From assembly GCA_025358515.1 (NCBI GenBank), contig JANYJG010000167.1, forward strand, positions 1-40,956: 40,956 nucleotides of DNA, in the 5' to 3' direction. The notes beneath the pieces were generated by a model. It made no database searches. It worked only from the letters and a program-made list of their open reading frames with translations, and was not told where the DNA came from. Each line of letters opens with the position of its first letter. Positions within the stretch are counted from its first letter, which is position 1. Of this stretch, positions 6,214-12,598 are shown piece after piece. A program made the position numbers and the translations under genes. The DNA comes from Chloroflexota bacterium. GTDB lineage: Bacteria; Chloroflexota; Limnocylindria; Limnocylindrales; CSP1-4.

Positions 6214-6338
6214 GGCAGGCTCCTTGCGCTCGGCTGCCTAGATTGTAAGGATGTGAGGTGCGCTCGACGGGCCGAATGCCGGACGAAGACCCGCCGAAGC
6301 CGCGACGCGGCCAGACTTGGCGTCACAGACTAGGATGC

Positions 6339-7280
6339 ATGGCGGAGGCGCGAGTGAACGGCCGGATCGAACCCCAGGATCAACGCATCAAGGTTGCTGA
6401 TGGCGTGGAGCTGCGCGTGCTGAGCTGGGAGCCCGCCCATGCGCCCGCTGACAGTGTCGTGCCACCGGGTCCGTTCATCCTGGTGCACGGCCTGGCATCC
6501 AACGCGCGGCTCTGGGATGGCGTCGCGCGCCGAATTGCGGCAGCCGGAGCCCGATCCGCAGCGGTGGATCTGCGCGGCCACGGCCACTCGGACAAGCCGG
6601 ACGGAGGCTACGACTTCGCCACCATCTCCGAAGACCTGCGTGGGTTGATAGCCGCGCTGGGCCCTTCATTCGAGCGGCCCGTTCTCGTAGGTCAGTCGTG
6701 GGGCGCGAACGTCGTCCTCGACTTCGCCGTCAGGTACCCGCAGCTCGCCCGAGGCATCGTCCTGGAGGACGGCGGCCTGACGGACCTTCAGGACGCGTTT
6801 CCGATCTGGGACATCTGCTGGGAGAGGCTCGCGCCCCCGCCCCTCGTTGGGGTGCCGCTGGCGTCGGTCGAGAGCTACTTCCGATCGTCGCACGCCGATT
6901 GGCCGGAGGAAGGCTTCGAGGGCTCCCTGGGCAACTTCGAGATTCGAGCCGACCGAACGATCGCGCCGTGGCTGACTCGCGCCCGGCACAAGCTCATCCT
7001 TCAGGCGCTGTGGGGACAGCGAACGGCGGACCTGTGGGCGCGGCTGGGCGTGCCGGTCCTCATCGTCCCGGTTGACGGCGCGGAGGCCGACTGGACGAAG
7101 GCCAAGCGCGCCGGCGCCGACGCGGCGGAAGAGGCAGCCCGAGCCTCCGGACTGCCGCTAAGGGTCAAGTGGTTCGAGGGCGACCACGATATCCACGCCC
7201 AGCATCCCGCTGAACTGGCCGAGGCAATTCTGTCGGCTGAGCGGGAGGGGTTATTCTCCGGGCCGACCGTCTCCCGATGA
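6339..7280 (+). CDS. Alpha/beta hydrolase
   Basis: A 313-residue alpha/beta-hydrolase fold enzyme, presumably cytoplasmic. Visible are the oxyanion-hole HGLASN (50-55), DLRGHGHSDKP typical of the family, the nucleophile elbow VGQSWG with S120, and a late GDHDIH with the probable catalytic H283. A lid insertion spans about 140-200. The ATG at 6339 is preferred because conserved sequence starts soon after it. CAGACT at 6326-6331 stands 7 nt upstream, as at other leaderless starts here. A GTG about 27 codons further upstream is the alternative. Its stop overlaps the next gene (ATGA), so the two are co-translated. The substrate is unknown. Confidence 0.85.
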   Translation: MAEARVNGRIEPQDQRIKVADGVELRVLSWEPAHAPADSVVPPGPFILVHGLASNARLWDGVARRIAAAGARSAAVDLRGHGHSDKPDGGYDFATISEDLRGLIAALGPSFERPVLVGQSWGANVVLDFAVRYPQLARGIVLEDGGLTDLQDAFPIWDICWERLAPPPLVGVPLASVESYFRSSHADWPEEGFEGSLGNFEIRADRTIAPWLTRARHKLILQALWGQRTADLWARLGVPVLIVPVDGAEADWTKAKRAGADAAEEAARASGLPLRVKWFEGDHDIHAQHPAELAEAILSAEREGLFSGPTVSR

Positions 7281-8569
7281 GCGACCTGCCGCGCATCCTC
7301 ACGATCATGGGCTCGGGCGAAACCACGCCAACCATGGCCCGCGTTCACCGCGCCGTGCTCGATCGGCTGGGGGAGCGGCCGGTCCCGGCCGTTGTCCTCG
7401 ACACGCCCTACGGGTTTCAGGAAAACGCCGCGGACATTACCGCGCGGGCCCTGGAGTACTTCCGAACCAGCGTGGGAACGCCGTTCTCGGTCGCGTCATT
7501 CCTCTCTGCCGATGGGGACGCGCTCACGCGGGAGACGGCGTTTCTGCGGATCCGCGACGCCCGCCTGGTCTTCACCGGTCCCGGCAGCCCGTCATACGCC
7601 CTGCAGCAGTGGGCGGGATCGGAGATTCCGCGCCTGCTTGCGGCCAAGCTGGCGGGCGGCGGCGCGGTGACGATGGCCAGCGCCGCGGCCCTGACCCTGG
7701 GTCGGTTCACGATTCCCGTGTACGAGATCTACAAGGTCGGTCAGGCGCCCCGATGGCTGCCCGGCCTTGATCTGCTCACCCCGCTGGGGCTGCCGGTTGC
7801 GGTCGTGCCCCATTACGACAACGCCGAGGGCGGCAACCACGACACGCGGTTTTGCTACCTGGGGGAGCGGCGGCTGCTGCTGATGGAGGCGGAGTTGCCG
7901 GCGGACGTCTTCATCCTGGGTGTGGACGGGCACACGGCCCTGGTGCTGGACCTGGACGCAGGACTGGCGTCCGTCGTGGGGTTGGGCACGGTCACGGTTC
8001 GAAAGGATGGTCGCAGCACGGTCTTCGCTGCGGGCACCCAGCTGGCGATCGCGGAACTGGTCGCGGCCGCTCGGGAGCCTGGCGCCCGTGGGGGGCCGGA
8101 ATCCCTTGCCACTACGCCCGCAGTCGCGTCCGCTGCGGCGGTCCTGGACGAGGCGCCGGCCTCGCGGCCCCTGCGCGAGGAAATCGCCACTCTGGAACGC
8201 GTCTTCGCGGCCTCGCTGGACGAATGCGATGCAACCGCGGCCGTTCGCGCCATCCTGGCGCTGGACGAGACGATCCAGGCCTGGGCCGGCGACACCGACC
8301 AATCCGATGCCTTGGGCGTGGCCAGGGCTGCGCTGAGGGCTGCCATCGTGAGCCTGGGCGAGATGGCCGAGGACGGCAGCCGCGACCCCCGCAAGCTCAT
8401 CGCTCCGTTCGTGGATGCGCTGCTCGCGGAACGAGTGCGAGTTCGCGCCGCTCGGGAGTGGGCCGCCGCCGATGCCATCCGCGATCGGCTGGTGGCCGCC
8501 GGTATCGAACTGCACGACTCGCCGGAGGGGACCACCTGGGAGATGAGTGCGGTCGGGCCGACGGGCTGA
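7277..8569 (+). CDS. Peptidase S51/type 1 glutamine amidotransferase-like protein fused to a CysRS-like C-terminal domain
   Basis: A 430-residue two-part protein. Residues 1-265 resemble the S51/cyanophycinase-type fold: MGSGETTP near the start, TGPGSPSYALQQW, and the probable nucleophile S135 in MASAAAL, in place of the usual GxSAGA. Residues about 298-430 resemble the tail of cysteinyl-tRNA synthetase. First comes a DALR-like helical stretch (ERVFAASLDECDATAAVRAI). Then comes a block that strongly matches the CysRS extreme C-terminus (REWAAADAIRDRLVAAGIEL, then HDSPEGTTWE). The catalytic Rossmann core of CysRS is absent. An Ala/Pro-rich linker (about 268-297) joins the parts. The ATG overlaps the hydrolase stop by 4 nt. 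Peptidase activity is plausible but unproven. The C-terminal part might bind tRNA or only act as a structural module. Confidence 0.75.
   Translation: MSDLPRILTIMGSGETTPTMARVHRAVLDRLGERPVPAVVLDTPYGFQENAADITARALEYFRTSVGTPFSVASFLSADGDALTRETAFLRIRDARLVFTGPGSPSYALQQWAGSEIPRLLAAKLAGGGAVTMASAAALTLGRFTIPVYEIYKVGQAPRWLPGLDLLTPLGLPVAVVPHYDNAEGGNHDTRFCYLGERRLLLMEAELPADVFILGVDGHTALVLDLDAGLASVVGLGTVTVRKDGRSTVFAAGTQLAIAELVAAAREPGARGGPESLATTPAVASAAAVLDEAPASRPLREEIATLERVFAASLDECDATAAVRAILALDETIQAWAGDTDQSDALGVARAALRAAIVSLGEMAEDGSRDPRKLIAPFVDALLAERVRVRAAREWAAADAIRDRLVAAGIELHDSPEGTTWEMSAVGPTG

Positions 8570-8638: not shown

Positions 8639-12594
<3,956 letters not shown>

Positions 12595-12598
<4 letters not shown>

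What the first reader, a model, noticed from the sequence alone, without database searches (positions are those of the whole stretch)
7277..8569. Peptidase S51-like domain fused to a cysteinyl-tRNA synthetase C-terminal domain
The N-terminal half carries an S51/class-I-amidotransferase-like fold with a Ser nucleophile. The last ~130 residues strongly resemble the DALR and terminal segment of CysRS (AREWAAADAIRDRL, then HDSPEGTTWE) without the catalytic core. I know of no described function for this pairing. It might act on aminoacyl or peptidyl groups bound to tRNA, or use the CysRS tail to find tRNA(Cys). It is translationally coupled to an alpha/beta hydrolase.
Basis: partly seen in the sequence, partly recalled or inferred. 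Interest (0 to 1): 0.65.

Follow-up and report, generated by a model that had tools for sequence, protein, structure and literature searches.

The report
Hydrolase carrying a cysteine-tRNA-binding tail
This gene makes a peptidase-like enzyme joined to the tail that normally lets cysteinyl-tRNA synthetase read the anticodon of cysteine tRNA, and because that tail's anticodon-contact residues are kept in every tailed relative examined, the enzyme is probably tethered to or switched by a tRNA, although its substrate is unknown.

Summary
ORF 7277-8569 encodes an S51-like (peptidase E/cyanophycinase fold) domain joined to a CysRS DALR bundle and terminal CysS_C domain, without a CysRS catalytic core. 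A complete CysRS lies elsewhere in the same genome. The fusion is not local: 80 near-full-length relatives were retrieved from Chloroflexota, Actinomycetota and other phyla. In distant relatives the DALR bundle is lost, but the terminal mini-domain usually stays. Five tail residues are invariant in 104 of 104 tails; three of them (R423, R427 and D436 in E. coli numbering) contact G34 of tRNA-Cys in the E. coli complex, and position 432 is always aromatic. YqeB, a PH-domain protein with the same tail, has lost 427, 432 and 436 in 8 of 8 sequences, so the fold does not need them. A single origin of the tails is disfavoured (AU p = 0.01, 49 columns). The coupled alpha/beta hydrolase family is adjacent in 62 of 81 loci and also beside tail-less relatives, so the two hydrolases form the core and the tail is an add-on. 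Best reading: a Ser-hydrolase tethered to, or gated by, tRNA-Cys. Neither tRNA binding nor the substrate is shown. I found no description of this pairing in the papers searched.

The parts
6258..7280 (+). alpha/beta hydrolase CDS (GQSWG nucleophile elbow), conserved partner gene
   Evidence: Pfam Abhydrolase_6 E 3.7e-20. Family directly upstream in 62 of 81 loci examined, the window included (some loci are cut upstream), mostly with a 4-nt overlap. True start may lie downstream of the first GTG.
7277..7280 (+). 4-nt stop/start overlap of the two genes (translational coupling)
   Evidence: ORF ends and starts; same spacing in most relatives
7277..8569 (+). S51-like hydrolase / CysRS anticodon-domain fusion CDS, 430 aa
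   Evidence: full-length relatives
7289..8065 (+). S51-like domain, residues 5-263
   Evidence: AlphaFold2 plus Foldseek to 6nqc, PepE and CphB
7679..7681 (+). S135, putative nucleophile in ASAAA, at a strand-to-helix turn
   Evidence: invariant in 67 of 67 aligned sequences and 80 of 80; model strand 129-134 then helix 135-139
7724..7726 (+). E150, candidate substrate-amine or supporting acid (TIPVYEIYK motif)
   Evidence: invariant; role inferred from D147 of Orf2 (PMC11078827)
7811..7813 (+). H179, putative catalytic histidine
   Evidence: invariant
7925..7927 (+). D217, candidate third triad residue (G[VI]D.HTA motif)
   Evidence: 80 of 80, at least 90%; position inferred from the S-H-D/E triads of MccG, PepE and Orf2
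8078..8167 (+). disordered Ala-rich linker, residues 268-297
   Evidence: pLDDT below 50 at 272-295
8168..8398 (+). CysRS DALR-like helical bundle, residues 298-374
   Evidence: hhalign E 6e-5 alone, 5e-22 together with the tail, shuffled controls
8399..8548 (+). CysS_C anticodon-binding mini-domain, residues 375-424
   Evidence: Pfam PF23493, 1LI5, hhalign E 1e-20
8432..8434 (+). R386 = E. coli CysRS R423 (G34 hydration network)
   Evidence: 104 of 104 tails; PMC12684709
8444..8446 (+). R390 = E. coli CysRS R427 (H-bond to G34)
   Evidence: 104 of 104 tails
8459..8461 (+). W395 = E. coli CysRS W432 (stacks on G34)
   Evidence: aromatic W/Y/F in 104 of 104 tails
8471..8473 (+). D399 = E. coli CysRS D436 (H-bond to G34)
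   Evidence: 104 of 104 tails

Best explanation
The protein is a probably cytosolic S51-type serine hydrolase that works with a co-transcribed alpha/beta hydrolase. Its CysRS-derived tail still binds the G34-containing anticodon loop of tRNA-Cys and so tethers or gates the hydrolase on that tRNA. Shown here: the architecture, the fold, conservation of the putative catalytic S and H and a candidate acid, conservation of the G34-contact residues, the conserved gene pair, a separate full-length CysRS, and a tail history that disfavours a single origin. Inferred: catalytic activity, tRNA-Cys binding, and that binding positions or switches the enzyme. The tether or gate reading is preferred over a fixed deacylase geometry because the DALR spacer is dispensable. 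The substrate is unknown; S51 precedent points to an amide bond after an acidic residue, or an aminoacyl-nucleotide.
For: The CysRS tail is homologous over 127 columns. R423, R427 and D436 are invariant and position 432 is aromatic in 104 of 104 tails; the three are among the five strictly invariant positions of the tail. R427 and D436 hydrogen-bond G34, W432 stacks on it and R423 lies in its hydration network (PMC12684709). YqeB tails of the same Pfam family lost 427, 432 and 436 in 8 of 8, so the fold does not demand them. A single origin of the S51 tails is rejected at AU p = 0.01, with tail-less relatives nested among tailed ones, which suggests repeated recruitment. S51 fold. S135, E150 and H179 are invariant. 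The hydrolase pair is conserved.
Against: No binding or activity data. The same retained residues occur in the tails of GT2 glycosyltransferases (12 of 12), where a tRNA role is not obvious, so the residues may serve another ligand. Four tail-less relatives exist. The nucleophile motif is ASAAA rather than G-x-S-A-G, so catalysis could be altered. The tail tree rests on 49 columns and the tested group was named after a first tree had been seen.
Confidence: 0.42

Rival explanations
1. The CysS_C mini-domain is a general interaction or folding module (protein-protein, or nonspecific nucleic acid) that was cut loose from CysRS and reused. The hydrolase pair has nothing to do with tRNA-Cys.
For: The domain is also on YqeB PH-domain proteins and on GT2 enzymes. 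The DALR bundle is lost in several lineages. The hydrolase pair also occurs without the tail (L140, L146).
Against: G34-contact residues are retained in 104 of 104 tails but lost in YqeB.
Confidence: 0.33
2. It is a tRNA-Cys quality-control hydrolase that removes a wrong aminoacyl or peptidyl group from the 3' end while the tail holds the anticodon.
For: The CysRS DALR plus tail are collinear with CysRS in the window's clade, with a Ser-hydrolase domain in place of the catalytic core.
Against: Several lineages have no DALR bundle and only a short linker, which makes reaching from anticodon to acceptor end uncertain. No S51 member known to me deacylates tRNA (own knowledge).
Confidence: 0.12
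3. It is a protective enzyme against Trojan-horse aminoacyl-nucleotide inhibitors of tRNA synthetases, in the manner of the S51 enzyme MccG.
For: MccG, an S51 enzyme, cleaves isoaspartyl-nucleotides that block AspRS, and many MccG homologues are stand-alone genes (PMC9239234).
Against: No PADLOC match and no biosynthetic cluster noted in the immediate neighbourhood. It is found in 19 of 20 other genomes of the window's genus like a core gene. No tRNA-binding tail is described for MccG in the passages read.
Confidence: 0.08
4. The fusion is an assembly or gene-calling artefact.
For: The window comes from a fragmented assembly (264 contigs).
Against: Continuous frame in many independent contigs, a Phytohabitans chromosome and annotated Streptomyces plasmid CDSs.
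Confidence: 0.01

Closest known systems
Peptidase family S51 (PepE, cyanophycinase CphB, MccG; acI-B1 actinobacterial peptidase 6nqc)
   Same: Fold (Foldseek E 5e-14, TM 0.81 by target to 6nqc), Ser nucleophile at the strand-helix turn, His and candidate Asp
   Different: Motif ASAAA instead of G-x-S-A-G, GPGSP loop, below the Pfam S51 cut-off, C-terminal CysRS domain, conserved alpha/beta hydrolase partner
Cysteinyl-tRNA synthetase (CysRS), C-terminal anticodon-binding region (PF23493 CysS_C, DALR)
   Same: Collinear DALR plus CysS_C, identical G34-contact residues
   Different: No class I catalytic core, no HIGH or KMSKS motif; the genome has its own full CysRS
YqeB (bPH_10 plus CysS_C)
   Same: A non-synthetase protein ending in CysS_C
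   Different: PH-like N-terminal domain; its tail lost the equivalents of R427, W432 and D436
MshC and CysRS* (known CysRS paralogues)
   Same: Derived from CysRS
   Different: They keep the catalytic core; CysRS* lacks the anticodon domain (PMC9437257) and MshC lacks it too (own knowledge). Here it is the reverse

Membership tests
Peptidase family S51 | S51 (class-I-amidotransferase-like) fold | tested here: met
   AlphaFold2 pLDDT 88.6; Foldseek 6nqc, 7ffp, 3en0, 6a4r
Peptidase family S51 | Pfam Peptidase_S51 score above cut-off | tested here: not met
   12.4 bits against 23.9, N-half scanned alone
Peptidase family S51 | Ser nucleophile and His of the triad | tested here: met
   S135 and H179 invariant; identity with the triad inferred from fold and order, not by superposition
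Peptidase family S51 | G-x-S-A-G nucleophile motif (own knowledge) | tested here: not met
   A/S-S-A-A-A in the near relatives instead
Peptidase family S51 | third triad residue Asp/Glu after His | tested here: inconclusive
   D217 conserved; no residue-level superposition available
Peptidase family S51 | Asp-X peptidase activity | not testable with these tools
   needs biochemistry
CysRS | C-terminal CysS_C domain | tested here: met
   PF23493 above cut-off
CysRS | DALR helical bundle | tested here: met
   hhalign E 6e-5 alone and 5e-22 with the tail; controls; absent in distant relatives
CysRS | class I catalytic core (HIGH, KMSKS) | tested here: not met
   no match to the core; CysRS profiles match only from residue 291 on
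CysS_C domains that bind the tRNA-Cys anticodon | R423/R427/aromatic 432/D436 for G34 | tested here: met
   104 of 104 tails, contacts from PMC12684709
CysS_C domains that bind the tRNA-Cys anticodon | actual tRNA-Cys binding | not testable with these tools
   needs a binding assay
YqeB | bPH_10 domain before CysS_C | tested here: not met
   only CysS_C found in P0001; the YqeB control has bPH_10 E 5e-56
MccG (S51 clade V) | cleaves processed microcin C-like nucleotides | not tested
   no assay possible; clade placement not computed

The most novel reading that the evidence does not exclude
The CysRS anticodon mini-domain is a detachable tRNA-Cys address tag, put more than once onto an S51 hydrolase and also onto a GT2 glycosyltransferase. 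It makes these enzymes tRNA-Cys-guided or tRNA-Cys-gated and links cysteine or tRNA-Cys status to a hydrolase pair outside translation.
Probability: 0.3. Interest if true: 0.85.

Novelty: new variant of a known kind. Interest (0 to 1): 0.56.

Why it matters
Known CysRS offshoots (MshC, CysRS*) keep the catalytic core and lack the anticodon reader. Here the anticodon reader is kept with its G34-contact residues and the core is replaced by an unrelated hydrolase. If the tail binds tRNA-Cys, this would be a family of anticodon-addressed hydrolases spread over Chloroflexota and Actinomycetota, outside the usual list of tRNA-dependent enzymes. It is easy to test, because the tail is about 50 residues, the contact residues are known, and a natural negative control (YqeB) exists.

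Tried and rejected
Artefact: rejected, since the fusion recurs in independent contigs, a chromosome and annotated plasmid CDSs. Mycothiol link: 16 of 30 surveyed Chloroflexota genomes carry a second CysRS-like protein whose match stops before the tail (MshC-like), and a seventeenth (G012) a shorter partial one. But a CysRS scan of the window's genome found no second CysRS-like protein, and several other genomes with the fusion have only one CysRS, so the link is rejected for this gene. Replacement of a lost CysRS tail: rejected, because the genome's own CysRS is complete with its own tail. Phage or defence gene: no PADLOC match and only weak PHROG matches to the tail. Paper searches for cyanophycinase plus CysRS, for domain fusions and for CysRS plus glycosyltransferase in Chloroflexi found nothing; subscription papers are mostly not in that library. 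The first AlphaFold2 model (16 sequences) was weaker, pLDDT 74, and was replaced. A first family alignment was spoiled because minus-strand loci were not turned; redone. One Actinomycetota search failed on the 'of' argument and was rerun.

Full report
CHECK OF THE OBSERVATION. The ORF 7277-8569 (+) encodes 430 residues without interruption. Its last 130 residues are homologous to the C-terminal half of cysteinyl-tRNA synthetase. Pfam CysS_C matches 379-421 above its cut-off, NCBIfam cysS profiles match 291-422 and 316-422 at E 3e-7 and 8e-7, and the E. coli CysRS chain 1LI5 matches 375-422 at E 9e-9. A profile-profile alignment of 81 relatives against CysRS sequences of related genomes is collinear over 127 columns, probability 99.4 and E 5e-22. 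The DALR part alone gives E 6e-5 and score 32, while 20 column-permuted controls reach at most 16.6. There is no CysRS catalytic core. A complete 464-residue CysRS with its own tail lies on another contig of the same genome.

THE N-TERMINAL DOMAIN. By sequence it is below Pfam's S51 cut-off (12.4 against 23.9 bits), but a profile of 24 relatives finds 6nqc (cyanophycinase-like exopeptidase) at E 1e-15. AlphaFold2 on 67 sequences gives pLDDT 88.6 and pTM 0.77. Foldseek ranks 6nqc (E 5e-14, TM 0.81 by target), Xenopus and Salmonella dipeptidase E and cyanophycinase first. S135 sits at a strand-helix turn (strand 129-134, helix 135-139). S135, E150, H179 and D217 are 80 of 80 among the closer relatives, and S135, E150 and H179 are invariant in the wider set. 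The order Ser-His-Asp matches the triads of MccG (S133-H168-D196) and Orf2 (S134-H170-D198) (PMC9239234, PMC11078827). The equivalence of D217 is inferred, not superposed. The nucleophile motif is ASAAA instead of G-x-S-A-G, so the substrate may differ from that of classical S51 peptidases.

SPREAD. Of the 20 other genomes of the window's genus that were searched, 19 have a match. In 18 of them the tail is seen; in one (G011) the contig ends within the N-terminal domain. The fusion is also in another genus of the family (58% identity), and in a family with reduced genomes where only the CysS_C mini-domain remains. That set is ranked by full-length similarity and so favours tailed members. A profile search of 151 Chloroflexota genomes found the N-domain in 39. 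Of the relatives read out in full from that survey, 18 have the tail, 4 do not, and 2 are more distant paralogues without it. Among 149 Actinomycetota genomes, 10 have the whole form. Of 30 Chloroflexota genomes with the gene, 28 have a CysRS above the family cut-off; the other two have a fragment or none, which fits gaps in draft genomes. Annotated plasmid copies are called 'hypothetical protein'.

THE TAIL. In 104 tails of S51-like proteins exactly five positions never vary: R423, R427, D436, R439 and D451 in E. coli numbering; position 432 is always W, Y or F. In the E. coli complex G34 is hydrogen-bonded by R427 and D436, stacked by W432, and R423 takes part in its hydration network (PMC12684709). 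The same residues are in 14 of 14 CysRS (432 being W or F). YqeB proteins, which carry the same Pfam domain behind a PH-like domain, lost 427, 432 and 436 in 8 of 8, although they match the Pfam model well. The fold therefore tolerates their loss, and their retention in the S51 proteins suggests selection for binding a guanine-bearing ligand, most simply the tRNA-Cys anticodon. This is indirect. Against a simple story, the tails of GT2 glycosyltransferases keep them too (12 of 12).

HISTORY. Tails fall into several places of a tail tree, and holding all S51 tails together is rejected (AU p = 0.01, 49 columns, group named after a first tree). In the N-domain tree tail-less lineages lie inside the tailed clade B. 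Repeated acquisition or exchange of the tail is likely; repeated loss also contributes or cannot be excluded.

NEIGHBOUR. The alpha/beta hydrolase gene overlaps the start by 4 nt. A member of the same family sits directly upstream in 62 of 81 loci examined, the window included, some of which are cut too short upstream to tell; most have the same overlap, and the Ser and His are conserved. It is also next door, in other orientations, in distant relatives (L135, L145) and in tail-less ones (L140, L146). The two hydrolases are therefore the conserved unit and the tail is an accessory. Other neighbours differ between groups of loci.

HOW IT MOST LIKELY WORKS. A Ser-hydrolase works with an alpha/beta hydrolase and is tethered to, or switched by, tRNA-Cys through the tail. 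A tether or gate is preferred to a 3'-end deacylase because the DALR spacer is dispensable. Steps shown: architecture, fold, residue conservation, gene pair, separate CysRS. Steps inferred: tRNA binding, catalysis, regulation. The substrate is open.

COMPARISON AND NOVELTY. A review of duplicated synthetases lists MshC and CysRS* as CysRS paralogues (PMC9437257); they keep the core and lack the anticodon reader (for MshC from own knowledge), and the present protein is the reverse. I found no description of an S51-CysRS tail fusion. It is a new variant of known parts, with an interesting and testable hypothesis, not yet a demonstrated new system.

Noticed in passing
L154, L155, L156, L161, L162 (Chloroflexota genomes); L120:1182-2351 (-) in the window's own genome (contig C75): A CysRS with its catalytic domain is fused at its C-terminus to a GT2 glycosyltransferase (about 800-850 aa). 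Elsewhere, including the window's genome, a CysS_C mini-domain alone precedes the same kind of GT2. Tail residues for G34 are kept in 12 of 12. I found no description of it.
   Followed up: partly
Second CysRS-like hits in G050, G118, G103, G114, G175, G156 and others: Many Chloroflexota genomes carry a second CysRS-like protein whose match stops before the CysS_C tail, as in MshC. This suggests mycothiol-type ligases outside Actinomycetota; MshC identity was not tested.
   Followed up: no
window 8639-12598 (+): A DNA polymerase III alpha-like gene (dnaE, by eye) starts about 70 bp downstream and carries a low-complexity Asn-Gly/Asn-Ala repeat near its C-terminus.
   Followed up: no
phrog_36975, phrog_30090: Two phage protein families of unknown function match the CysS_C tail weakly (E 0.005 and 0.009), so the mini-domain may also travel in phages.
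   Followed up: no
L140:2488-3435, L146:2231-3163, L135:4323-5291, L145:4275-5198: The alpha/beta hydrolase partner stays next to the S51-like gene even when orientation differs or the CysRS tail is absent.
   Followed up: yes
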